Source: a virus. Taken from it: a stretch of 39,271 nucleotides of DNA. The notes under the pieces were generated by a model. That model did no database searches. It was not told where the DNA came from and saw nothing but the letters and a program-made list of their open reading frames with translations. The DNA is taken from positions 1-39,271 of IMG/VR virus record IMGVR_UViG_3300050133_000049, one strand, 5' to 3'. The position numbers and the translations under genes are program-made. Position 1 is the first letter of the stretch; each line of letters starts with the position of its first letter. Of the stretch, positions 2,664 through 38,207 are shown piece by piece.

Positions 2664-3317
2664 ATGTACGTCTATCTAGCGACAAACAATATCAACGGAA
2701 AACAATATGTTGGGCAGCATTCGGGAAGCGATTTGAGTAAGTATTGGAATCACTGTGTTGCGCATGCTTTACGTGGCAGCCGTGATAAGCCATATTTATA
2801 CAACGCTGTTCGAAAGCATGGCCTTAGTAGTTTTCATATAAGTCCGCTTGTCATAGTAGCGACAAAATGGGAGATGGACCTGTACGAGAAAGGAATGATT
2901 AAAGCTCTAAATACTCGAAAGCCAGTCGGATATAATCTTACCGAAGGCGGCGACGGTGTTTTGGGATTAAGGCATTCTGAAGAGTCCAATCAAAAGAATA
3001 GAGACGCTCATCTAGGCCGGAAAGACTCCCCCGAGACCAAAGAGAAGAAAAGGGTCACTAGTTTGGGACGTAGACATACAGAAGAAACTCGGTTGAAAAT
3101 GTCTCAACACATTAAGTCAGAAGAACATCGAAAGAAAATCTCAATCGCTAAGATGGGGAATAAGTCGCGGTTAGGGATGAAGAATTCAAAGAAGTCCCGA
3201 AGACCTCGATCAACAGAAGTCAGATTAAAAATGTCTGAGGCGCAGACGCGCCGCAGAGAAAGAGAAAGGCAGGGCAATGGCAATTCAATACAGCACCAGC
3301 AAATCAGGCCTAGTTGA
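2664..3317 (+). CDS. free-standing GIY-YIG homing endonuclease
   Basis: A 217-residue protein. The N-terminal about 95 residues form a GIY-YIG nuclease domain (MYVYLATNNINGKQYVGQ, with the two Tyr motifs, then YLYNAVRKHG, and an E in YEKGMI). The C-terminal half carries several NUMOD3-type DNA-binding repeats (LGLRHSEES, LGRKDSPET, LGRRHTEET, KSEEHRKK). It lies between the capsid gene and the next virion gene, outside intron 3, so it is free-standing; it might act in trans on the introns' target. The SD AAGGGAGGA sits seven bases before ATG. Its 3' end overlaps the next gene by 41 bases and contains that gene's SD. Confidence 0.88.
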   Translation: MYVYLATNNINGKQYVGQHSGSDLSKYWNHCVAHALRGSRDKPYLYNAVRKHGLSSFHISPLVIVATKWEMDLYEKGMIKALNTRKPVGYNLTEGGDGVLGLRHSEESNQKNRDAHLGRKDSPETKEKKRVTSLGRRHTEETRLKMSQHIKSEEHRKKISIAKMGNKSRLGMKNSKKSRRPRSTEVRLKMSEAQTRRRERERQGNGNSIQHQQIRPS

Positions 3318-10229: not shown

Positions 10230-10628
10230 ATGCTCCAAGGATACAAGTCGAATAACAACGTGGTTTACAGCAGCAAGTACCACGTTGTGTGGTGTCCGAA
10301 GTATCGCCGCAAGGTTCTGGAAGGTGCTATAGCGAAGCGACTGGAACAAATTCTAAAGCAGGAGTGCAAGAAGTACCGAGCCGAAATCATCGCACTGGAA
10401 ATCATGCCCGACCACGCTCATTTGCTTGTAGAAGTAGACCCGCAGTTTGGGATTCATCGGCTCGTAAAGAGCCTCAAGGGTGTTTCTTCACACCACTTGC
10501 GAAAAGAGTTTGCAAGTCTTGTTTCTCGTTTGCCGTCGTTGTGGACAAATTCATATTTCGTGTCCACGGTCGGTGGAGCACCGCTGTCCGTAATCAAGCA
10601 GTATGTGGAGAATCAAAAGAACGTCTGA
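10230..10628 (+). CDS. tnpA: TnpA, Y1 HUH transposase
   Basis: A 132-residue protein of normal family length. YHVVWCPKYRRKV (residues 17-29) is the first strand. H62 and H64 in MPDHAHLLVEV form the HUH metal site, and Y125 in IKQYVENQ is the expected nucleophile. It cuts and rejoins single-stranded element ends via a 5'-phosphotyrosine link. Its stop TGA (10626-10628) overlaps the tnpB start ATG by one base, so tnpB is probably coupled to it. All catalytic residues are present. Confidence 0.93.
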   Translation: MLQGYKSNNNVVYSSKYHVVWCPKYRRKVLEGAIAKRLEQILKQECKKYRAEIIALEIMPDHAHLLVEVDPQFGIHRLVKSLKGVSSHHLRKEFASLVSRLPSLWTNSYFVSTVGGAPLSVIKQYVENQKNV

Positions 10629-11737
10629 TGATAAAGACATTCAAGTATCGGTTGGTGCCAACTCGCAAGCAGCAGGCTGCGTTGCAGACCCTGCTGGATT
10701 CCTGCCGATTTTTGTACAACTGCGCTCTTGAACAACGCAAGATGCGGCGTATCGGTCAGTTTGCACAAATGCGAGAAGTCACCGAAGTACGAGCGGCTTT
10801 CCCTGAGTACCAAGGCGTCCACGTTCACATTTTGCAGAACGTGATTAAGAAATTAGACAGAGCGTTTCAAGGATTCTTCCGTCGCATCAAGCACGGGCAA
10901 AAAGCAGGATTCCCACGATTCAAAGGCAAAGACCGATTTGATTCCTTTGCCTTCAACAACACTGGATTCAAACTCGCGGGACGGTATTTGCAAATCTCCA
11001 AGATTGGTGCTGTGAAGTTGCGGCTCTCCCGTCCCTTGCCCGAAGGCTCGGCTGTCAAGTCGCTGGTAGTCAAACGCAGCGGGCAGAATTGGTACGCATG
11101 CCTTGCTGTAGAGTTTTCTCCTGTGCATTTGCCGCACAGTGATGCGCGGGTTGGCATTGATGTTGGCGTGGTTCAGTACGCCACATTCAGCGACGGTAGC
11201 TCGCCTATCGAGAACCCCCGCTTCTACGAGAATGCTCAAGCCGAGTTGCGACGTTCACAGCGCAGAGTCGCCCGCCGCAAGCGCGGTTCGCATCGCAGAC
11301 GGAAGGCAGTTGCGCTGCTTCGGAAACTGCACGAGCGTATTGCGAACAAGCGGAATGATTTTCTTCACAAGCAAACTACGGCGTTGATTCGGAAGTACGG
11401 CACCATCGGCGTGGAGAATCTAAACATCGCCGGAATGGTTCAGGGCAACTGTAGCAAACAGATTCTGGATGCATCATGGGGAACGTGGCTGCGAATGCTC
11501 GTCTTCAAAGCGGAAGAGGCTGGAAGACGTATCGTCGCGGTAGACCCGAGGTTCACAAGTCAAACGTGCCCGTGCTGCGGATACAAAGATGCAAAGAACA
11601 GACCAACGCAAGCGGAGTTCAAATGCTTGGATTGCGGTTTTGAAGCCAACGCAGACTTCATAGCGTCGGTAAATATTTCGGCTCGGATAGAGCCGTCAGG
11701 CGTCAACGTAGGGAGATTAAGCCCATGCGTAGCCTGA
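10628..11737 (+). CDS. tnpB: TnpB, RNA-guided nuclease of the IS605 family
   Basis: A 369-residue protein. RuvC-like catalytic residues are visible: D178 (GIDVGVVQYATF), E263 (IGVENLNIAGM) and D343 (NADFIASVNI). A four-Cys zinc ribbon is present (C314, C317, C333, C336). The N-terminus MIKTFKYRLVPTRKQQ is the standard start. TnpB proteins are guided by an RNA (reRNA/omega RNA) from the element's right end and cut next to a TAM equal to the left target motif, here predicted TTGAC. A longer in-frame ORF starting at 10289 covers tnpA in another frame and is not real. Confidence 0.92.
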   Translation: MIKTFKYRLVPTRKQQAALQTLLDSCRFLYNCALEQRKMRRIGQFAQMREVTEVRAAFPEYQGVHVHILQNVIKKLDRAFQGFFRRIKHGQKAGFPRFKGKDRFDSFAFNNTGFKLAGRYLQISKIGAVKLRLSRPLPEGSAVKSLVVKRSGQNWYACLAVEFSPVHLPHSDARVGIDVGVVQYATFSDGSSPIENPRFYENAQAELRRSQRRVARRKRGSHRRRKAVALLRKLHERIANKRNDFLHKQTTALIRKYGTIGVENLNIAGMVQGNCSKQILDASWGTWLRMLVFKAEEAGRRIVAVDPRFTSQTCPCCGYKDAKNRPTQAEFKCLDCGFEANADFIASVNISARIEPSGVNVGRLSPCVA

Positions 11738-21979: not shown

Positions 21980-23725
21980 ATGGCAAACGAACAACCAGAT
22001 CCTCTTGCAGAATTCGGAGGTGGCACAACTACGTCTTCTCCGGCGCCAGTCGCGGCGTCCGATCCCCTTGCTGAATTCGGTGGGGCAACAATGGCTGCAC
22101 CGGCTACGCCGCTAGCTAATCCGGGAACGATGTCTGCGCCCCAAAAACCTTCCACACTCAGCACCGTGGAAAAGGTAGCGCTGGGTCCGATCATCGATCC
22201 GGCGGGAACCGTGAGCCACGCGCTTAATGCCGTAACGAGCGGAATTGAGAATTACAGCCAGGAAGGTCGCGCGGATCACCCGATCTTATCTCGTATCGGC
22301 GACCTGACTCGTTCTGCGAAAGAGTTGCTCACCGGCGGACAATCCGCTGGTAAACCTTTGGGCACGTCATCCGGAGCGGTCAATAATCCGGTCACACAAT
22401 TAATGGCTGCGGCCCCTGCGGCGGCAGAGCTAGGCGGCGCGGCAGAAGAAAGATTGACACAAGGCTTGGACGCGATCAGGTCGGCGCGGAACGCGCGCAC
22501 CGCAACGGCGGCACAGCAAGCGGCTGCGAAGGCCGCGACCGTTCGGCCCGTGGACCCGGCTCAGTTTGTGTACCGCGAGCCCTCGCCGGTGCCACAGCAC
22601 GGCGCCCCGGTACAGGTCGGGAGTCCGCTGGACAACGCGACGATCAACAAGCTTCCTGGCGGGAAAGACCTGAGTGCGGACGCGGTAGAGACGCTTAAGA
22701 AGCACATCGGCGGCACGCCGGGCGCGGAGATTGAGGCTGGTAGCAGCCCGAAGAACACGCTTATGAAGGCCGTAGAGCCCGTACAGCAGACGATCAAGGA
22801 AACTGGCATCAAGATGAATGACCTGATCCAGAACTCGCCTCCGTTCCGCTCCACAGTTAAGGATGACGGCACCCTGGTCGATGTGATGAGCGAGCTTAAG
22901 AACAACATCCCCGCGAGCGATCGCGCGAAACTGAGTTTGGATGTGGATGACGAATTGAAGAACGCGAACGACGCGATGATCTCGTTCGATCCGAACGAAG
23001 TGCTTGCGTATCGTCGGAAGCTCGGGAGTCAGATCGATTGGAACGACATACCGCGCAATCCGCAGACTCCGGGAGAAGTGCAGAATGTGGCGAAGGTGAA
23101 AATCTACAAGGCTCTGGGCGATAAGATTCACATCGAAGTCCCCGGCGCCGCGGAACTGGATAAAATCTTTCAGCCGAACCTCGAATTGCAATCGCACCTC
23201 GACGCGAAGCTTGGCCGCACGGTTAGCCGCGACCCAGTGGAAGCGAACGCACAACAGCGGTCCGAATTGCTCAAGGGCAAGGCGCAGCTGGAGAACAAGG
23301 CGCATAATGAGATTATTGCGAAGAATCGTGACCTCGCCGGGCTGTCAGAGAGCGACATAAAGCCGACCATCACCGGGGCGAATGTTCCTAAGACTCCGGT
23401 AGACGTGGCAGTCGACAAGGCGCTGGACCAGTTTAATGTACCCGTCACAGAGAAGCCCGCGTTGCGAGACATCCTTGATGTAAAGGCTGGGACTTATTAC
23501 GGCACGAACACCGATTGGGTAAACGCGAGAAATACATTCGATAAACTGTCCCCGGCTGAGCGTGCGGCCCGATTCTCTAACCCCGAAGAGGTGCGATCGG
23601 TGCTACAGAAACAAGCTAAAAGGCAAGCTGTTAAGGCGATCCTTAAATATGGTAGTATCGGAGCGGCAGCCATCGGCACGGGTATCGACAGGTACATTCT
23701 GCACGCAGCGGCGACGGGAGAATAA
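21980..23725 (+). CDS. virion-associated protein, unknown role
   Basis: A 581-residue protein, function unknown. The N-terminus carries two DPLAEFGG motifs (residues 7-14 and 28-35), a short repeat seen in internal phage proteins. HPILSRIGDLTRSAKELLTG near residue 95 resembles HPILIHIANTLRAATDMLRK in the next gene. The remainder is charged and helical. A short hydrophobic stretch lies at the C-terminus (AILKYGSIGAAAIGTG). AAGGAGGATAGA gives a strong start. It probably belongs to the ejected protein set. Confidence 0.65.
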   Translation: MANEQPDPLAEFGGGTTTSSPAPVAASDPLAEFGGATMAAPATPLANPGTMSAPQKPSTLSTVEKVALGPIIDPAGTVSHALNAVTSGIENYSQEGRADHPILSRIGDLTRSAKELLTGGQSAGKPLGTSSGAVNNPVTQLMAAAPAAAELGGAAEERLTQGLDAIRSARNARTATAAQQAAAKAATVRPVDPAQFVYREPSPVPQHGAPVQVGSPLDNATINKLPGGKDLSADAVETLKKHIGGTPGAEIEAGSSPKNTLMKAVEPVQQTIKETGIKMNDLIQNSPPFRSTVKDDGTLVDVMSELKNNIPASDRAKLSLDVDDELKNANDAMISFDPNEVLAYRRKLGSQIDWNDIPRNPQTPGEVQNVAKVKIYKALGDKIHIEVPGAAELDKIFQPNLELQSHLDAKLGRTVSRDPVEANAQQRSELLKGKAQLENKAHNEIIAKNRDLAGLSESDIKPTITGANVPKTPVDVAVDKALDQFNVPVTEKPALRDILDVKAGTYYGTNTDWVNARNTFDKLSPAERAARFSNPEEVRSVLQKQAKRQAVKAILKYGSIGAAAIGTGIDRYILHAAATGE

Positions 23726-24385
23726 ATGTCATCCACGAATGTTATGCCTAAGAATGCCGATCCGATCGGGGACGTGGCTAAGGCGCTCGATAGCGTCGTA
23801 GGCGAAATCACTCAGTATCCCGAACAAGACGTCAAGCAGCATCCTATCCTGATCCACATCGCGAACACGTTGCGCGCGGCAACCGATATGCTACGTAAGG
23901 AAACTGGCGCGGAGGGAACAAACCTCACGCAGAATCAAGTCTCGCCGGGCACGGACGAACAAGCGGCCAAGGGCGTTCAGAACTTGCCGGAGTTTGCGGC
24001 AGCGCACGGCGGCGACGAAGACCTAGCGGGCCTGTCCAAGGCCACGAAGCTTGTGGCGCTCGCGAAGAAATATCCGCAAGTTGCGGAGACGTTGAACATG
24101 GCGCGCGAAAATCCTATGCTCTCGAAGATCATCACCACGCCTCCGAAGCCGGAGCCTGCAGCGAAGTCTCCCGCAGCGAAACCGGCTGCGAAGAAAGATA
24201 AGACTGCGGCGAAGCCATCCGCTCCGGAAGCTAAGAACGAAGAGCAGCCCGAAGCCCCGCCTCCAGTCGAGGCAGGATTCGTGCGCGTGCAGGATAGTCG
24301 CGGCGGAATCCACGACATCCCCGAGCAGGCGATCGCTGCGGCGCAACAGCGCGATCCAGGTCTCAAGATCATGGGCGGTAAATAA
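23726..24385 (+). CDS. virion-associated protein, unknown role
   Basis: A 219-residue protein beginning right after the previous stop. Residues about 30-55 share the HPIL-helix motif with the gene before it, so the two are probably related or interact. Residues about 140-185 are a low-complexity Lys/Ala/Pro linker (AAKSPAAKPAAKKDKTAAK). The end (GFVRVQDSRGGIHDIPEQAI then AAAQQRDPGLKIMG) is a short motif with which many phage proteins end. The stop TAA shares its last A with the next ATG (TAATG). Confidence 0.65.
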   Translation: MSSTNVMPKNADPIGDVAKALDSVVGEITQYPEQDVKQHPILIHIANTLRAATDMLRKETGAEGTNLTQNQVSPGTDEQAAKGVQNLPEFAAAHGGDEDLAGLSKATKLVALAKKYPQVAETLNMARENPMLSKIITTPPKPEPAAKSPAAKPAAKKDKTAAKPSAPEAKNEEQPEAPPPVEAGFVRVQDSRGGIHDIPEQAIAAAQQRDPGLKIMGGK

Positions 24386-26436
24386 TGGCTGACGATAAGG
24401 ACTATCAACAGTCCGCGGAGTTTACGCCTACTCCGGAAGATACCAGAAGTTTCCAATCGTGGACGCCCACCGGCCCCACGCAAGTTGACGGAATGGTTTC
24501 TCCGGGGAACATCGATTTGACTGCGCGCCCGATCGTTCACCACTCGGACGGTTCGGCCAGTTCCTTGTATTCGTCCAGCTTCAACCAAGACGGACGCGAA
24601 ATCCTGGTCCCTCAAGTGAGCCCCGACGGCCACATGATGACCGCGAAAGAAGCGCAGGACGAATATAACAAAACCGGAAAGCATCTCGGCATGTTTAAGA
24701 GCCCGGACGATGCGGACAGTTACGCGCAGATGCTTCACTTGAAACAGGGCGCGTTCCAAACGTACAAGAACGGCGGAAAATATAAGCCGTCCGTCGAGAC
24801 GTATGACGATTGGAAAGAGCCTAGAGACGGCGCGCCGGAAAGCAGTCGGCTACTCGGCGATCGCGCCGCGACCAGCACGCAGGCGCAAGCTAAGGCGGAT
24901 CTTCCGCAGCCCAAGACTGAATCTGCATTCGACTTCTCCGATCTAGGCGGAAAGAAAATTTCTGCGGGCGACGCACTCCAGAAGAGCGAAGCCGACGCCG
25001 CGGCAGACAACGAGTTGTACAAGACGGACCCAGACGCGTTCAAGTCCAAACACCCGGTTGATTACCGAATTCGCAAAGCGCACGACTTCATGTCGAACGC
25101 GATCACCGGGCTCGCGATGCACGACCAGGCTGCGAGCACGCGCGCACTGGCGGAAGCCCCCGTACGGAAAGTAGTCAACAGCGCGATGGGTCTCGCGGGT
25201 GTGCCGACCGGCGAACAGCAGGGCGGCATGCTGATGTCCACGCTGCCCGGCAAGGGCGGCATGGAATCGGAAGGCGGCGTTGAGCGCGGCCCAGACCGCC
25301 GTGTAGGCGGCGACGAGTTGCCGGTGGAAGGCGAACGACGCCTCGGCCCCCGACGTCAAGTCACATACTCGGATGCGCAGAGTCGCGCCATAAAGAACGT
25401 AGATGCCCAAATTGCCCGCCCCGGCCTGACCCCCGAAGATCACGTGTCTCTGACTCGGCAGCGGCAGGAAATCCTCGATCACCCGGAAGACTTCGGCGTG
25501 GTCAGCGAAGCGCGGAAAGAGCCCAACGAGCCCGGCCTTGAGCAACAGATCAACGCGGTGCGCGGCCAGATCGGTCGTGGAAAGTCTCCGGAGTCCTTGG
25601 AGCCTGGCGCACGGTACCTGTACCAGAAGTACGTGTCGCCTCTAGGCGGCGAAATTTCTAAATCGTACAAGCCGGTTGCCGGTTTGGACCCCGAAGAGGT
25701 AGAAGCGATCGGCGGAAAGACCATCGTTCCGCCTACGCCGCACCCCGATGTGATCAAAGACGGGTGGATCACGGACCAAGGCTTCGTAGAGAATCCGAAC
25801 GGCACAAACCACAAACAGAATGCCCCGGACAACGACACGCAGGCTGCGATTAAAAACGGGCATGTCCGTGTCGCGACATTGGGCACGAACGGAGAGAATC
25901 TCCATTTCGAAGCGCACGACTACAGCGACCCGAATACTCGCAAGCGCATCGCGGATGCGATTCAGCACGCGCCTCGCGCGCAAAGCATCGGCATGGAGTT
26001 CACGAAGCCGTCATCTTACAGGAATCAGCCCAGCATGAGCCCGGAAGACGCGATGAAGTGGTTGGACGCGAACGGCGGTGTCTCCGGAGTGACCGAAGAG
26101 GTTAAACCCGGCGCGGCCACCGACCCGGAAGAATATTCACAATCTGCGAAGTATAACGGCGTGGAATATCGCGGCATCCAGAAACCTATCCTGGACGACA
26201 CCGGTAAGGTTTTACATCCGGGCGTGGCAATGTTCCAAGACCCGAAGTCCGGCACGTCTGTCGGGGTGCGGTTGGATGAATGGACCCCGGCGAAGCTGCA
26301 CGAGCACGTAGAGGCGGCGCGCGAGCGCATGAAGGGAACGCCGAACGTCGTTGCGAAGGCGCCGAAAGTAGTTGACAAGAAGCCCGCTCCTAAGCTAGAC
26401 TCTGATGCAGCCGGAAGAAAGGCTCTTTACGAATAA
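24385..26436 (+). CDS. large virion-associated protein (possible ejection protein)
   Basis: A 683-residue protein. Residues about 38-135 hold a domain common in phage internal proteins (PGNIDLTARPIVHHSDGS, REILVPQVSPDG, KTGKHLGMFKSPDDADSYAQ). A mixed charged region follows, with a polar linker at about 295-330 (ERGPDRRVGGDELPVEGERR). The C-terminal part has a compact fold candidate (VEYRGIQKPILDDTGKVL, SGTSVGVRLDEWTPAKLHEH). No lytic transglycosylase motif was seen, unlike T7 gp16. Translationally coupled to the previous gene. Confidence 0.65.
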   Translation: MADDKDYQQSAEFTPTPEDTRSFQSWTPTGPTQVDGMVSPGNIDLTARPIVHHSDGSASSLYSSSFNQDGREILVPQVSPDGHMMTAKEAQDEYNKTGKHLGMFKSPDDADSYAQMLHLKQGAFQTYKNGGKYKPSVETYDDWKEPRDGAPESSRLLGDRAATSTQAQAKADLPQPKTESAFDFSDLGGKKISAGDALQKSEADAAADNELYKTDPDAFKSKHPVDYRIRKAHDFMSNAITGLAMHDQAASTRALAEAPVRKVVNSAMGLAGVPTGEQQGGMLMSTLPGKGGMESEGGVERGPDRRVGGDELPVEGERRLGPRRQVTYSDAQSRAIKNVDAQIARPGLTPEDHVSLTRQRQEILDHPEDFGVVSEARKEPNEPGLEQQINAVRGQIGRGKSPESLEPGARYLYQKYVSPLGGEISKSYKPVAGLDPEEVEAIGGKTIVPPTPHPDVIKDGWITDQGFVENPNGTNHKQNAPDNDTQAAIKNGHVRVATLGTNGENLHFEAHDYSDPNTRKRIADAIQHAPRAQSIGMEFTKPSSYRNQPSMSPEDAMKWLDANGGVSGVTEEVKPGAATDPEEYSQSAKYNGVEYRGIQKPILDDTGKVLHPGVAMFQDPKSGTSVGVRLDEWTPAKLHEHVEAARERMKGTPNVVAKAPKVVDKKPAPKLDSDAAGRKALYE

Positions 26437-26444
26437 GGAGGTCT

Positions 26445-26735
26445 ATGCTTTATAGAATCTATGCGGCAAATATTTTCCCGATGGACGTGGCGCCCATTTT
26501 ACGCGACCGTGGCATACAGTCGTTTTCCATGATTAAGCAAGAGGGTTATTGGCGCGGCGTGCCCGAAGCATCGGTTGTAATCGATGTGTTTGACGAGAAT
26601 GGAGAACTTGAGAACCGGATATACGCAGCCGCAGAAGATATTCGCGCTCTGGGTAATCAGGAGATTGTGTACGTGATTGAGTTCCAGGCGCATGCGGTCC
26701 GATCTATAAAACAAAGTCTTGACATCGGATTTTGA
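26445..26735 (+). CDS. small hypothetical protein
   Basis: A 96-residue protein with an alpha/beta look (YRIYAANIFPMDVAPILRDR, VVIDVFDENGELENRIYAAA, EIVYVIEFQAHAVRSIKQ). It begins after a textbook SD (AAGGAGGT). The last codons contain the -35 box of the tmRNA promoter. Function unknown; it is the last gene of the virion run. Confidence 0.75.
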   Translation: MLYRIYAANIFPMDVAPILRDRGIQSFSMIKQEGYWRGVPEASVVIDVFDENGELENRIYAAAEDIRALGNQEIVYVIEFQAHAVRSIKQSLDIGF

Positions 26736-26747
26736 ATTTGGTACTTT
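26719..26747 (+). promoter_or_regulatory. tmRNA promoter
   Basis: Perfect TTGACA (26719-26724), 17-base spacer, TACTTT (26742-26747). The tmRNA 5' end at 26754 lies six bases further, exactly where transcription should start. The -35 box is inside the end of the preceding coding sequence. Confidence 0.8.
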
Positions 26748-26753
26748 CTTACA

Positions 26754-27107
26754 GGGGGCATTCCGGAGTCGCTAGTAGACCGGAGCTTCTCAAAGTCATG
26801 CCGGGCTCCAATTCGCCCGTTATCGATTGGGCCAATTTAACTGGCGCAACACCGTTAGCACTCGCCGCCTAGAGATAGGCTGTGAGCGTCCGCCTGTCAT
26901 CTGCTCTATGTGACAGGGTCGGGCGTCGACAGTAGAGCTAGTCAACAATGCTTCGGTCCGCAGCATGTTGATTAAATCATCGGACTAGGTCGCCGCGCGC
27001 CTTGCTCGTTCTGAGGGCGGCGCCCGAATCTAACGAACGAGAAACGCATGTAGTCTCTGAGTCGCGAAGTTTACTATACAAGGGTTCGAATCCCTTTGCC
27101 TCCACCA
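26754..27107 (+). ncRNA. ssrA: phage-encoded tmRNA
   Basis: A 354-base transfer-messenger RNA. The acceptor stem pairs GGGGGCA (26754-26760) with TGCCTCC (27097-27103), then ACCA. The T arm is GGGTTCGAATCCC. The tag frame ends GCACTCGCCGCC-TAG (26858-26872); the likely tag is ANLTGATPLALAA from GCC 26831. Two pseudoknots are clear: stem CAACAATGC/GCATGTTG (26943-26951/26963-26970) with loop GTCCG pairing CGGAC 26981-26985, and stem CGCCGC/GCGGCG (26991-26996/27017-27022) with loop CTCGTTC pairing GAACGAG 27035-27041. The D-loop region (GGAGTCGCTAG) departs from the usual TTCGAC motif. It would rescue stalled ribosomes and tag nascent chains for ClpXP-type proteolysis. Either phage-carried or the host gene captured by integration. 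Confidence 0.93.
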
Positions 27108-27125
27108 CATTGTGAAAGGACGGTT

Positions 27126-27764
27126 ATGCCGAAGGGTTATCCAGGAAGTTCACCATTATGTATGGTGAAGGGCTGTAAAGTGACGTCGCACTCTAGAGGT
27201 TTGTGCGTTCGACATTACGCCACTCACCGGCGAAAGAACCTAGAAGTCATGCGGAAAAGAAAGATTATACAAGCCCGATGGCATCGAAAGAATTTAGATA
27301 AGGTTCGCAACAAACGACGAGAGAATTATCATCGTAAGAAGGACGCTTGTTATGCTGCTTACGGAGGCTATGTTTGTGTATGTTGTGGGATTACTGAACC
27401 TCTGTTTTTGACTTTAGACCACATTCACAATGACGGGGCTAAATTTAGAGCCAACCCGAAGTTTCGTGGTAGAGGCTCGCGGTATCTTTACAAATGGATT
27501 ATTAAGAACAATTTTCCAGACGATATGTTTCAAGTTTTATGCTATAATTGCAATTGTGGGCGGGCTAGAAATAACAACATCTGTCCGCACAAGAAAGGAG
27601 GACCAATGGCAAAAGGATCAGGCGACAAGCTGGCAAGCGGCGCGATCAAAGCGCAGTTCCCGAACGCGGGAGCAAATGTTAGCCAGAAACGTTGGGATGA
27701 GATATTCGGATCTGATAGCGGACCAAACCGCAAGGCTGTGCCTCGCAAACGCCGCAAGAGCTAA
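27126..27764 (+). CDS. HNH homing endonuclease fused to a small downstream gene
   Basis: A 212-residue ORF. Residues 1-90 are basic with a Cys/His finger (CMVKGCKVTSHSRGLCVRHY) and a Lys/Arg helix. The HNH nuclease is VCVCCGITEPLFLTLDHIHN, ending VLCYNCNCGRARNNN. From residue 161 (MAKGSGDKLASG) the character changes, and an AAAGGAGGA SD precedes the internal ATG 27606, so an older small gene is joined in frame to the endonuclease. The ORF starts 18 bases after the tmRNA CCA with GAAAGGA upstream. AT-rich like the other mobile genes. Confidence 0.8.
   Translation: MPKGYPGSSPLCMVKGCKVTSHSRGLCVRHYATHRRKNLEVMRKRKIIQARWHRKNLDKVRNKRRENYHRKKDACYAAYGGYVCVCCGITEPLFLTLDHIHNDGAKFRANPKFRGRGSRYLYKWIIKNNFPDDMFQVLCYNCNCGRARNNNICPHKKGGPMAKGSGDKLASGAIKAQFPNAGANVSQKRWDEIFGSDSGPNRKAVPRKRRKS
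27606..27764 (+). CDS. small basic protein with internal start inside the HNH ORF
   Basis: A 52-residue protein (MAKGSGDKLASGAIKAQFPN, then SQKRWDEIFGSDSG and a Lys/Arg end). It has a strong SD of its own (AAAGGAGGACCA), better than that of the HNH ORF. I read this as the original phage gene, now also translated as a C-terminal extension of the endonuclease. Function unknown; the basic tail suggests nucleic-acid binding. Confidence 0.65.
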   Translation: MAKGSGDKLASGAIKAQFPNAGANVSQKRWDEIFGSDSGPNRKAVPRKRRKS

Positions 27765-27781
27765 CCTGGTAATTTGATCGA

Positions 27782-27812
27782 GTGCCGGATAACCGTCCCG
27801 CGGGTCCGGCAC
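27782..27812 (+). repeat. perfect 8-bp hairpin
   Basis: GTGCCGGA (27782-27789) and TCCGGCAC (27805-27812) with a 15-base loop, between two genes. No T-run follows, so it could be a weak terminator, a processing site or an operator. Confidence 0.5.
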
Positions 27813-27835
27813 AATCCTTGACTGAGGAGGGCCAG

Positions 27836-28147
27836 ATGTCAAGTTTACTGAAGGTGGATTACGACGGGCGCCACAAGGCGTTCGCGGATTTCAAACAGGA
27901 TATTGAGGCCAGGCTCGAAGCATGGCTCCTGGAGCACCCTGTCGAGCCCCAGAAACTGCTGACCACATCGTTCGGGAAAAACATGATCGTGAAGGTAATG
28001 CCGTCCGCGTTTGCATACGGCGGCTGGATCGTGCACAAGAACGGAGAGATTATGGAAACGTTCACCGGCGACAACGCGTGGGCGGACGCCACGTCGTATG
28101 GAAACAGATTGCTAAATCCTAATTCGGAAGAGAACCGGAGACAATGA
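27836..28147 (+). CDS. small hypothetical protein
   Basis: A 103-residue protein. ATG 27836 is preferred (GAGGAGGGCCAG just upstream). It has a helical start (HKAFADFKQDIEARLEAWLL) and a beta-rich middle (NMIVKVMPSAFAYGGWIVHK). Function unknown. The stop overlaps the next start (ATGA), so it is coupled to the glycosyltransferase. Confidence 0.72.
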   Translation: MSSLLKVDYDGRHKAFADFKQDIEARLEAWLLEHPVEPQKLLTTSFGKNMIVKVMPSAFAYGGWIVHKNGEIMETFTGDNAWADATSYGNRLLNPNSEENRRQ

Positions 28148-29211: not shown

Positions 29212-30105
29212 CTACTTTATTGAAAAACCAAGCCCGGCCTTCTGTGCCCACTCCTTACGCAGGACCGTGTTCTGCGCAAGCTTGCTGTACCGATCGGTTA
29301 TATCTCGATTCGCTGAATGCCCGATCCAAAATTTCAAGATGTCTTCGGGTGTTCCCACTTCGCGCAGCCGCGTCGTGCGGAACCGGCGAAGGCTGTGGTG
29401 TCCTGGCACGCCGTCCGCTTTCAGCGTCCGATAGGTGTTATCACGTTTCATGTTGAAAATGTTCCCTGCCGGGGAACTAATCGCGCGCAGCGTATCGCTG
29501 ATCTCTGGGATGATATCCACCTCGCGGGTGCCTGCGGTCGTCTTCGGGGCCACGCTGAGCCCGTCCTGCACCTGATCCCGGATAACCAGCTTACCCTGTT
29601 CCGGGAGCCAGAACGACCCTTTGCTATCGTCCAGGCCCGCCCGTAGCGCGAGGCATTCGCTGATTCTAAGCCCCGTCCCGGCCAAGGTGATGTACAGAGG
29701 TTTAAACTGCCCTTGAGAGCGGGAAATCGCCTCCTGGAGGGCTTCCTGGGTTATTGTAGGCGCCGCCTGTTCGGACGGAATCACTTCCGGAAGGTCGATA
29801 AAGTCCGCATTCCACGTCCGAGGGTACAACTCGTTGCCGTTTTTGTCCGTCGCGGAGGCGATAACCCCCTTTAAACAGTTCACGATACCCATCACTGACG
29901 CCGGTTTAAGTTCCCCGGCGATCGAAGACACAAACTTCTTCATCGCACCGTTATCGAAGTTCGCCAAGTCTTCGGCGCCGCAGAGGGGAACGATCCACGT
30001 CCGGAGGTAGCTCTGGTATCTTTGCAGAGTGCCCGGCTTGGGCGGCTTTCGGCGCCGAGACTCCAGCGCGTTTATGAAGGCGACCGACTGTGTTTGGATG
30101 TTCAT
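29212..30105 (-). CDS. int: tyrosine integrase
   Basis: A 297-residue tyrosine recombinase. The N-terminal about 90 residues form the SAM-like core-binding domain (GTLQRYQSYLRTWIVPL). Catalytic residues visible: R147 (GTGLRISECLAL), H237 and R240 (HHSLRRFR), H263 (IGHSANRD) and the nucleophile Y273 (DRYSKL). ATG 30105 has an AGGAGACACA SD; an in-frame extension to 30132 does not. It implies a temperate life cycle, with site-specific integration into the host chromosome. The tmRNA gene 2.1 kb away is a possible attachment site (inference). It has its own promoter just upstream. Confidence 0.93.
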   Translation of the reverse strand: MNIQTQSVAFINALESRRRKPPKPGTLQRYQSYLRTWIVPLCGAEDLANFDNGAMKKFVSSIAGELKPASVMGIVNCLKGVIASATDKNGNELYPRTWNADFIDLPEVIPSEQAAPTITQEALQEAISRSQGQFKPLYITLAGTGLRISECLALRAGLDDSKGSFWLPEQGKLVIRDQVQDGLSVAPKTTAGTREVDIIPEISDTLRAISSPAGNIFNMKRDNTYRTLKADGVPGHHSLRRFRTTRLREVGTPEDILKFWIGHSANRDITDRYSKLAQNTVLRKEWAQKAGLGFSIK

Positions 30106-30122
30106 TGTGTCTCCTGTAAACG

Positions 30123-30151
30123 AAGATAGCATTGATTCACAGGAGCGTCAA
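30123..30151 (-). promoter_or_regulatory. integrase promoter
   Basis: On the minus strand TTGACG (30151-30146), a 17-base spacer and TATCTT (30128-30123). It lies between the DUF4031 gene and the integrase, ending 18 bases before the integrase ATG. No clear operator palindrome was seen. Confidence 0.7.
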
Positions 30152-34320: not shown

Positions 34321-34683
34321 TTATAATAAATTGTCGTACCCCCCAATTCGAATCAACCGACGTTTGTTCGCTTCGAAGGTCTCGTCATGGTGCACGTGCA
34401 GCCCTGCCGCAAGGTGCAACATTTCATGCTGCAGAACGATGAACACGATCCGCCTGCCGCAGGCCCACACCGCCTTGCTAAACGTGATCTTGTAGTACAA
34501 CAACGCGTGCGCCTGATCAGCCATGCGTGCACACTCTCCGGACTGGCCGTAACCCATTCGATCCACTCCGAAGGTTACGTTCTTCGGTAGCGAGTCCGAG
34601 AAGCACATCCGATTGATCTGTGCGTACCGCCGTTGCACATCCTTAACTGTTACTCGGCGTACTCGCTTCCGTGGTTTGACCAT
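34321..34683 (-). CDS. SprT-like zinc metalloprotease, cytosolic form
   Basis: A 120-residue protein without a signal peptide. Basic start, then RRYAQINRMCFSDSLPKNVT, and the active site VLQHEMLHLAAG (HEMLH 86-90) with HVHHDETF supplying the third ligand. SprT/Spartan relatives degrade DNA-protein crosslinks or act as small metallopeptidases. Two of these enzymes of different localisation lie one gene apart. Confidence 0.8.
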   Translation of the reverse strand: MVKPRKRVRRVTVKDVQRRYAQINRMCFSDSLPKNVTFGVDRMGYGQSGECARMADQAHALLYYKITFSKAVWACGRRIVFIVLQHEMLHLAAGLHVHHDETFEANKRRLIRIGGYDNLL

Positions 34684-35401
34684 GTTCCTCCTTGTCTTCG
34701 GGCCAGATTTGGGGAATCAGGAGCCGCGTAATGTCTCGGCCGTCGTCACTTGTGAGTAGCGGCGCCGCGTACACGTTCTCTTTCAGGATCATGCCGCCGC
34801 GCTTGAACCGCTCTGGATACGCGTCCCAATTGTCTCCAGCATCCTTAATCATCTTCAACTGAGCGTCGATACTCTTCTTGAGAAGCTGTTTAGAACTGTA
34901 GTGGACCCGCGCAGTACTTTGGATGGAATTTTTAATCGCGTCCTTCTGGCGCCAAATAAAATAATTCTCCACCTCGACGTAATCCGCGATAGTGAACGCC
35001 CGCGCGTCGAACAGGGCGCCGGACGGATGTGCGTGCGTGATCGCTGAAGCCAAGCGGTTGAATGCCATGGTCAGCATCGACGCGGTAATGCTTGAGATTT
35101 TCTGTAAGTTGCCGTCGTGCCACGCGTCCGTGTTCGGCTTGGCAAAGTCGGTAAGCAGGATCGACACTTCGTCGAACTGGGTGTATCCGAAGATGGCACC
35201 TTGGATGTTCCGGATCAGCCAACCCGCGGACAGGTCGAGCACGTCCGCGAATTGCGCGTCGTACGGCCGGTCCAAGTCCTTTGTCCAACTATGGAAGCCT
35301 ACGCCGTCCAGCCGGACGATGGTGTACGTGCGCCGAGGCAGCATGTACCGCGTACGGTCTTCGTACCGCTCCTTCATTCTGTCGCCTATGTTGTCCGTCA
35401 T
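34643..35401 (-). CDS. Thg1-like 3'-5' nucleotidyltransferase
   Basis: A 252-residue protein. TIVRLDGVGFHSWTKDLDRP contains the first metal Asp (D32) and H37. GAIFGYTQFDEVSILLTDF contains D77 and E78, matching the Asp/Asp/Glu set of tRNA-His guanylyltransferase (human D29, D76, E77). Thg1-like proteins add nucleotides to the 5' ends of tRNAs, and bacterial forms repair truncated tRNA 5' ends. Phage copies may restore tRNAs damaged by host nucleases (inference). The end is polar and low-complexity (EHGQTTEASTPSNS). Overlaps the SWIM gene by four bases (ATGA). Confidence 0.88.
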   Translation of the reverse strand: MTDNIGDRMKERYEDRTRYMLPRRTYTIVRLDGVGFHSWTKDLDRPYDAQFADVLDLSAGWLIRNIQGAIFGYTQFDEVSILLTDFAKPNTDAWHDGNLQKISSITASMLTMAFNRLASAITHAHPSGALFDARAFTIADYVEVENYFIWRQKDAIKNSIQSTARVHYSSKQLLKKSIDAQLKMIKDAGDNWDAYPERFKRGGMILKENVYAAPLLTSDDGRDITRLLIPQIWPEDKEEHGQTTEASTPSNS

Positions 35402-37218: not shown

Positions 37219-37561
37219 GGGAATTATATAGTTGACTCCCTCGGTTTAGGCTCCCAGCCTTTACTGTTTATTGCGTTATACAGCTTTTGTAGCGCCTTAT
37301 CCAACGCATCAAAAGTCGGGTCAGAACGAAAATCGTTAGGTAACTGTTCCCAATGGTCCAAGACATTGCCAATTTCCTTGCTAAAAGCCCATGTTTTGCG
37401 TGAGTCCCACTGATGGGGTCCTTCGTGGGCCGAGTTTAATTCACAGCGAAATGGACCTAACCATTCGTCGCAGCGAATTTCAATCGTATTCGCGGGAATA
37501 AATTGATTCATTGTCATCATATCTCCTTTGTTTACTTGCGGGAGTTATCTATATAATTCCC
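37219..37561. repeat. 22-base inverted repeats flanking one gene
   Basis: The segment 37219-37240 and the reverse complement of 37540-37561 match at 20 of 22 positions (GGGAATTATATAG..., ending ACTCCC). They overlap the stop codons of the 37224 gene and of the HNH gene. They may be a transposition or recombination scar, or a pair of operators. Confidence 0.7.
37224..37520 (-). CDS. hypothetical protein
   Basis: A 98-residue protein (EIRCDEWLGPFRCELNSAHE, then HQWDSRKTWAFSKEIG, and a helical end). The start may be the first, second or fourth Met; AAAGGAGAT fits best with the second (37517). Cys and His in the first third could bind a metal. It lies between the inverted repeats and directly after the HNH gene. 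Confidence 0.65.
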   Translation of the reverse strand: MMTMNQFIPANTIEIRCDEWLGPFRCELNSAHEGPHQWDSRKTWAFSKEIGNVLDHWEQLPNDFRSDPTFDALDKALQKLYNAINSKGWEPKPRESTI

Positions 37562-38207
37562 CTATTTTGAACCCGTATAACTTAAGAAATTCCCTAGCCC
37601 ATTTGATTTTGTCCGACACGCGCTGCCCGGCAGGGTGTGCAACAGACCAGAGTTCCAAATTGCGGTCACGATTATCTGCGCGGCGCCCATTTAAATGATG
37701 AACTTTCTCATGCGGGTGCAATAATCTACCTAGTCTCTTCTCCATCACGACGCGATGTTGCATCTTTCTTTTACTCCCGTTTATGCGAACCCAAATATAC
37801 CCGTGTCTATCTACTCCACTACTGTTTGTTGAATTCTTCCAAAATGTATAATGATGTTGGGCCGAACAGAAGTGATTCTTGCTTCTAGTTCTTTTAGAAT
37901 TCGGGATAATAAGCAGCTTCCCACACAACGCACAATTTACCGTTTTAGTATGGTCGAGTTTGTGGCATTTGTATGAACAATACAGTCTCAATCTACCCTT
38001 ATTCCTAAGCTGCCATCTTGCGATTACAAAACTTCTTTTGCAAAATTTACAAGTTTTGTTTGTCGCGGCAGCCCGTTTCTTCCTGGCGCCTAGCCAACGA
38101 TTTCTGCAAAGAACTGAACAAAAATAATTCCTTGCCTTCGACCCAAACATCCAAGGCTTGCGCGGAATCTTTCGTTTACAAAAATCACAATTATGTTGAA
38201 TTTTCAT
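37545..38207 (-). CDS. HNH endonuclease with three zinc knuckles
   Basis: A 220-residue protein. Three Cys clusters fill the N-terminal 125 residues (CDFCKRKI...CSVLCRNRW; CKFCKRSF...CSYKCHKL; CALCGKLL...CSAQHHYT). The HNH nuclease follows: QHRVVMEKRLGRLLHPHEKV, then HHLNGRRADNRDRNLELWS and HPAGQRV. This is a different HNH type from those at 1321 and 7728 and looks like a homing nuclease inserted at the 3' end of the helicase gene. The start overlaps the helicase end by 17 bases. AT-rich. Confidence 0.85.
   Translation of the reverse strand: MKIQHNCDFCKRKIPRKPWMFGSKARNYFCSVLCRNRWLGARKKRAAATNKTCKFCKRSFVIARWQLRNKGRLRLYCSYKCHKLDHTKTVNCALCGKLLIIPNSKRTRSKNHFCSAQHHYTFWKNSTNSSGVDRHGYIWVRINGSKRKMQHRVVMEKRLGRLLHPHEKVHHLNGRRADNRDRNLELWSVAHPAGQRVSDKIKWAREFLKLYGFKIGELYR

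What the first reader, a model, noticed from the sequence alone, without database searches (positions are those of the whole stretch)
26719..27107. Complete phage tmRNA with its own promoter and an unusual D-loop
The acceptor stem, T arm, ALAA-type tag, two clear pseudoknots and a perfectly spaced promoter are all visible. The 5' domain lacks the usual TTCGAC. A phage-borne tmRNA with its own tag (ANLTGATPLALAA) could reroute tagging or rescue ribosomes during infection.
Basis: partly seen in the sequence, partly recalled or inferred. Interest (0 to 1): 0.72.

Follow-up and report, generated by a model that had tools for sequence, protein, structure and literature searches.

The report
Complete tmRNA gene in environmental phage
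This environmental phage carries a complete, well-folded gene for the bacterial ribosome-rescue RNA (tmRNA), a kind of gene already known from many large phages, but this copy is unusually divergent, sits beside a likely homing endonuclease gene and is missing from the phage's closest known relative.

Summary
Positions 26754-27107 (+) are a full one-piece tmRNA: ARAGORN calls it, and Rfam RF00023 matches end to end (119 bits, cut-off 47). All parts are present: acceptor stem with G3-U70, T arm, encoded CCA, helix 2, four pseudoknots (not two), resume-codon context and an ALAA tag. The D-loop deviates (GGAGTCGCT for GGATTCGAC), but the nucleotides that contact SmpB in E. coli (A15, U17, C18, G19, A334) are kept; A20 is lost. 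The promoter is weaker than claimed: perfect -35, 17-nt spacing, but a -10 of 3/6.

It is phage-borne: both flanks are about 83-88% identical to a 111-kb phage contig that lacks the tmRNA and its neighbouring HNH endonuclease gene. That relative keeps only CTCCACCA, possibly a deletion scar, at the junction. Neither the phage nor its relatives encodes SmpB.

Phage tmRNAs are well known, so this is a new member of a known kind. It probably supplements host trans-translation, using host SmpB, AlaRS and ClpXP. The tmRNA-HNH pairing resembles phage T4 SegB and its tRNA cluster. That link is inference; the pairing did not recur elsewhere.

The parts
26719..26747 (+). candidate promoter: TTGACA, 17 nt, TACTTT with TGG before it (extended -10)
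   Evidence: sequence; not listed by the consensus scanner; -35 also present in the tmRNA-less relative
26754..27107 (+). tmRNA (ssrA-like) gene, standard one-piece form, CCA encoded
   Evidence: ARAGORN; Rfam RF00023 119.1 bits; fold z -2.55
26754..26760 (+). acceptor stem 5' strand GGGGGCA; pairs with TGCCTCC 27097-27103 including G3-U70
26761..26772 (+). D-loop TTCCGGAGTCGC, lacking the usual TTCGAC; equivalents of A15, U17, C18, G19 kept, A20 replaced by C
   Evidence: contacts in PMC8363625
26773..26801 (+). helix 2, 5' strand (pairs with 27046-27076)
26802..26830 (+). pseudoknot 1 (CGGGC/GCCCG and CCAAUU/GAUUGG)
26838..26842 (+). UAACU frame-setting sequence (A86 equivalent present)
   Evidence: alignment; PMC2481249
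26843..26872 (+). tag reading frame GATPLALAA-stop, resume codon GGC (Gly)
26861..26886 (+). helix 5 hairpin; the stop codon begins within it
26890..26938 (+). pseudoknot 2
26939..26986 (+). pseudoknot 3
26991..27041 (+). pseudoknot 4
27046..27076 (+). helix 2, 3' strand
27080..27107 (+). T arm, 3' acceptor strand and CCA
27126..27764 (+). HNH endonuclease-like ORF starting 19 nt after the tmRNA, fused in frame to a small phage ORF that starts at 27606
   Evidence: HNH call: PHROG 3593 E 9.6e-4 on 27096-27764 and 33 viral relatives; no Pfam hit above cut-off; absent from this place in the relative; GC 0.445 for 27126-27644 against 0.523 for the window

Best explanation
A phage-encoded, probably functional tmRNA. 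Shown here: gene, fold, tag and intact SmpB/AlaRS/frame-setting determinants at sequence level, and presence in the phage genome at a site that is empty in a close relative. Inferred: it is transcribed during infection, matured by host RNases, charged with alanine by host AlaRS, bound by host SmpB (the phage has none on the sequence held), enters ribosomes stalled on broken mRNAs and adds A-GATPLALAA, so that the tagged product goes to ClpXP-type proteases and the ribosome returns to phage translation. Its variable presence, next to an HNH homing-type endonuclease, is best read as gain or loss of an accessory translation gene, possibly with co-conversion by the endonuclease.
For: Full-length Rfam match well above cut-off, inside the range of other phage-type tmRNAs (82-156 bits) and below the 168-228 bits of bacterial-type copies (the split into phage-type and bacterial-type is my reading of their context). 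Second pseudoknot stems outside the Rfam model: P 0.020, 0.063, 0.063 and 0.031 separately; combined by Fisher's method by hand about 0.001. G3-U70, discriminator A, CCA, A86 equivalent four bases before the resume codon, resume codon 12 nt after PK1, -LAA tag end (PMC3968760, PMC2481249). SmpB-contact nucleotides kept (PMC8363625). The sequence is very divergent (47% to its nearest of 27 others) with structure intact, which argues for constraint rather than a fresh host copy.
Against: D-loop A20 is replaced by C, unlike every other genuine copy sampled. The -10 element is weak. No expression data. Only one phage carries this exact tmRNA, so purifying selection cannot be measured, and its nearest relative does without it.
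Confidence: 0.82

Rival explanations
1. It is a decaying or passenger tmRNA: carried by linkage to the HNH homing endonuclease and no longer (or never) useful to the phage.
For: The tmRNA and HNH gene are both absent from the relative at this site; HNH region has low GC; A20 lost; weak -10; the relative keeps CTCCACCA at the junction (shuffle P 0.0003), as if a tmRNA or tRNA-like gene had been deleted there.
Against: All helices, four pseudoknots and every tested functional determinant except A20 are intact despite very high divergence. No other HNH relative sampled lies next to a tmRNA, and neighbours of other viral tmRNAs showed no recurring HNH gene by eye.
Confidence: 0.12
2. It acts on the host system rather than beside it: an altered D-loop tmRNA that titrates SmpB or competes with host tmRNA, as reported for tRNA-like-domain-only RNAs.
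For: D-loop deviates; precedent in mycobacteriophage DS6A, whose reduced form inhibits endogenous tmRNA (PMC11915505; PMC4131195).
Against: Unlike DS6A it keeps a complete reading frame, a degradation tag and all pseudoknots, which a decoy would not need.
Confidence: 0.04
3. It is the host's ssrA caught at a prophage attachment site (the integrase gene lies 2 kb away).
For: Integrase gene at 29212-30132; ssrA is a common integration site (PMC4383910 abstract; PMC11915505).
Against: Both flanks continue into genes shared with a phage contig, so no chromosome is present on either side. No genome in the collection has the same 3' end.
Confidence: 0.02

Closest known systems
Bacterial tmRNA (ssrA), standard one-piece form, Rfam RF00023
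   Same: Whole architecture: tRNA-like domain with G3-U70 and CCA, helix 2, PK1, tag frame, helix 5, PK2-PK4
   Different: D-loop GGAGTCGCT instead of GGNTTCGAC; acceptor GGGGGCA/TGCCTCC, of which no genome in the collection shows the patterned 3' end; very divergent sequence
Phage tmRNAs (Mycobacterium phages Bxz1, Wildcat, cluster C1; Streptomyces BE1; Bacillus phage G; Stenotrophomonas phage Marzo)
   Same: Complete tmRNA in a phage genome
   Different: Those phages whose tRNA counts were read here (cluster C1, BE1, Marzo; abstracts) carry 23-48 tRNAs; here the tmRNA is the only tRNA-like gene in the 39 kb and its neighbour is an HNH gene
Mycobacteriophage DS6A tRNA-like-domain-only tmRNA
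   Same: Phage-borne tmRNA-derived RNA
   Different: DS6A form lacks the messenger part; this one has it
T4/T6 SegB homing endonuclease with its tRNA cluster
   Same: Nuclease gene next to a tRNA-type gene that varies between related phages
   Different: SegB is GIY-YIG and has demonstrated homing; here the nuclease is HNH-like and untested

Membership tests
tmRNA (RF00023) | Covariance model score above gathering cut-off over the full model | tested here: met
   119.1 bits against 47, positions 1-374
tmRNA (RF00023) | Acceptor stem with G3-U70, discriminator A, CCA | tested here: met
   GGGGGCA/TGCCTCC-ACCA
tmRNA (RF00023) | T arm and stem-less D-loop keeping the SmpB-contact nucleotides A15, U17, C18, G19, A334 | tested here: met
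   alignment; contacts from PMC8363625
tmRNA (RF00023) | Conserved D-loop TTCGAC including A20 (common, not a defining requirement) | tested here: not met
   GTCGCT here; G19-A20 kept in all other genuine sampled copies. Not taken as defining: the loop also varies in other phage copies (ATTGATT, ATAGATT), and the full model still scores far above cut-off
tmRNA (RF00023) | Resume codon four bases after the A86 equivalent, short tag ending in hydrophobic -LAA, stop codon at helix 5 | tested here: met
   UAACU-GGC, GATPLALAA
tmRNA (RF00023) | Four pseudoknots | tested here: met
   a count of generic crossing stems is not discriminating by itself (49 of 300 shuffles reach it)
tmRNA (RF00023) | Alanylation, SmpB binding and tagging activity | not testable with these tools
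   needs experiment
Homing endonuclease cassette (SegB-like co-conversion of an RNA gene) | Nuclease gene beside the RNA gene; both absent from a related phage at the same site | tested here: met
Homing endonuclease cassette (SegB-like co-conversion of an RNA gene) | Cleavage of the empty allele and preferential inheritance | not testable with these tools
   needs experiment
Homing endonuclease cassette (SegB-like co-conversion of an RNA gene) | Recurrent association of this nuclease with tmRNA or tRNA genes | tested here: not met
   a tRNA within the fetched flanks in 1 and a tmRNA in none of 36 loci scanned, 33 of them HNH relatives with up to 3 kb each side

The most novel reading that the evidence does not exclude
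A tmRNA mobilised between phages by an adjacent HNH homing endonuclease, with a D-loop adapted to a non-standard or particular host SmpB: a mobile ribosome-rescue cassette.
Probability: 0.12. Interest if true: 0.55.

Novelty: new member of a known kind. Interest (0 to 1): 0.3.

Why it matters
It adds a divergent phage tmRNA, without nucleotide matches among 50,697 phage records, with a natural empty site in a close relative. That pair makes the question of why phages carry tmRNA comparable between two similar phages. Its D-loop tests how much of TTCGAC SmpB really needs. As a discovery it is modest, because phage tmRNAs have been reported in dozens of genomes.

Tried and rejected
Host copy: two 3'-end patterns in 84,980 genomes gave nothing, so the host ssrA was not found and the host stays unknown. 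Exact 3'-end and D-loop patterns in 2.9 million viral contigs gave no second copy. blastn of the tmRNA against 50,697 phages gave no match. The weak RF00023 hits in relatives (nothing above cut-off) are 17-91 bases long, far under cut-off, and read as tRNA-like. SmpB is absent in this record and four related records. A generic pseudoknot count was uninformative; the position-specific test replaced it. More distant relatives (L003, L004) have the small downstream ORF in another context, so they do not tell whether gain or loss is ancestral. An att-site role for the tmRNA was considered and rejected because both flanks are phage. The IS200 transposase search hits too many taxa to name a host.

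Full report
Check of the observation. ARAGORN finds one tmRNA and no tRNA in the window, at 26754-27107 on the + strand. Rfam's tmRNA model RF00023 matches the same bases from its first to its last position with 119.1 bits against a cut-off of 47 and E 3.7e-46. The RNA folds better than 99 of 100 shuffles, z -2.55, even though that program cannot draw pseudoknots.

Anatomy. The acceptor stem is GGGGGCA with TGCCTCC, which contains the G3-U70 pair and is followed by the discriminator A and an encoded CCA. Helix 2 starts with eight pairs, UAGUAGAC with GUUUACUA. Four pseudoknots can be drawn at the expected places. The stems that the Rfam model does not contain have shuffle P values of 0.020, 0.063, 0.063 and 0.031; combined by hand with Fisher's method that is about 0.001. 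A plain count of crossing stems is not informative, since 49 of 300 shuffles reach it. The tag frame starts at the Gly codon GGC at 26843 and reads GATPLALAA-stop. The frame-setting A lies four bases before it and the resume codon starts 12 bases after pseudoknot 1, as in E. coli (PMC2481249).

The D-loop. The usual GGNTTCGAC reads GGAGTCGCT here. In the E. coli structures (PMC8363625) SmpB contacts A15, U17, C18, G19 and A334, and G19C abolishes trans-translation. By the alignment these positions are all kept in the window; A20 is replaced by C. Among the other tmRNAs taken from viral contigs every genuine copy keeps G19-A20, while the neighbouring bases vary, for example GGTATTGATT and GGAATAGATT. 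So the loop is unusual at one conserved base but not obviously broken.

Promoter. TTGACA at 26719, a 17-base spacer and TACTTT (3 of 6) with TGG before it. The scanner, which asks for 4 of 6, does not list it. A promoter is plausible, not shown.

Surroundings. The record is an IMG/VR virus contig. The contig IMGVR_UViG_3300014501_000002 (111.5 kb) matches the window over most of its length: 88% over 22244-26739, 83% over 27740-28107, 86% over the integrase. It has no tmRNA above cut-off. Window bases 26740-27739, holding the tmRNA and an HNH-like ORF, are replaced there by 165 bases. The relative's sequence after the shared -35 reads AATTTCGG-CTCCACCA; CTCCACCA is the end of the window's tmRNA and occurs within a few bases of the break (shuffle P 0.0003). 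This suggests that the relative lost a tmRNA or tRNA-like gene, though eight bases are thin evidence and tRNA-Ala-like ends look alike. The HNH ORF starts 19 bases after the tmRNA, has lower GC (0.445) and runs in frame into a small ORF (from 27606) whose homologue stands alone in the relative. The HNH label rests on one weak PHROG match (E 9.6e-4), on the residue pattern and on 33 viral relatives; Pfam has no hit above cut-off.

How it most likely works. The phage supplies its own tmRNA and borrows host SmpB (none in this or four related records), AlaRS and proteases. It releases ribosomes stalled on broken messages in the infected cell and marks the products for degradation. Steps shown: gene, fold, determinants, phage location. 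Steps inferred: expression, charging, tagging and benefit to the phage.

Known context. tmRNAs are reported in many phages (PMC4131195; PMC11915505; genome notes). A pattern scan of IMG/VR gave 64 contigs with a tmRNA-like 3' end, of which ARAGORN read a tmRNA in about half; some are bacterial-type copies next to integrases or smpB, others phage-type (the sorting is by eye). The window's score of 119 bits lies in the phage-type range of 82-156 and it is the most divergent of 28, 47% to its nearest. A nuclease gene beside tRNA genes has a precedent in SegB of T4-type phages (PMC2988022; PMC13096335). The tmRNA-HNH pairing was not seen elsewhere, so it may be coincidence.

Verdict. A real, probably functional, divergent phage tmRNA: a new member of a known kind, of modest interest.

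Noticed in passing
34643-35401 (-): Thg1-like tRNA-His guanylyltransferase gene (Pfam PF04446); homologues occur in 125 phage records. A second translation-related gene in the same phage.
   Followed up: partly
10230-11737 (+): IS200/IS605-type element with a Y1 transposase (10230-10628) and a TnpB-like gene (10676-11737, with Cas12f1-like TNB domain) inside phage genes.
   Followed up: partly
311-769, 2664-3317, 37545-38207: Several further endonuclease-like ORFs (weak LAGLIDADG; GIY-YIG with NUMOD3; HNH_3), so the phage is rich in homing-type genes.
   Followed up: no
27606-27764 (+): The HNH-like ORF reads through in frame into a small phage ORF that is separate in the relative and keeps its own ribosome-binding site (AAAGGAGGACCAATG).
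   Followed up: partly
L020, L040, L044, L055, L073: A family of phage-type tmRNAs with 21-residue tags of the type GNTFAKLQAVGLLRTEEVTVA and D-loop GGTATTGATT or GGTATCGATT.
   Followed up: no
L039, L052, L064: Viral tmRNAs with 31-residue tags of the type AKSEFDFAPSVAEADAFLKAAGFVDAELLAA, much longer than the usual 10.
   Followed up: no
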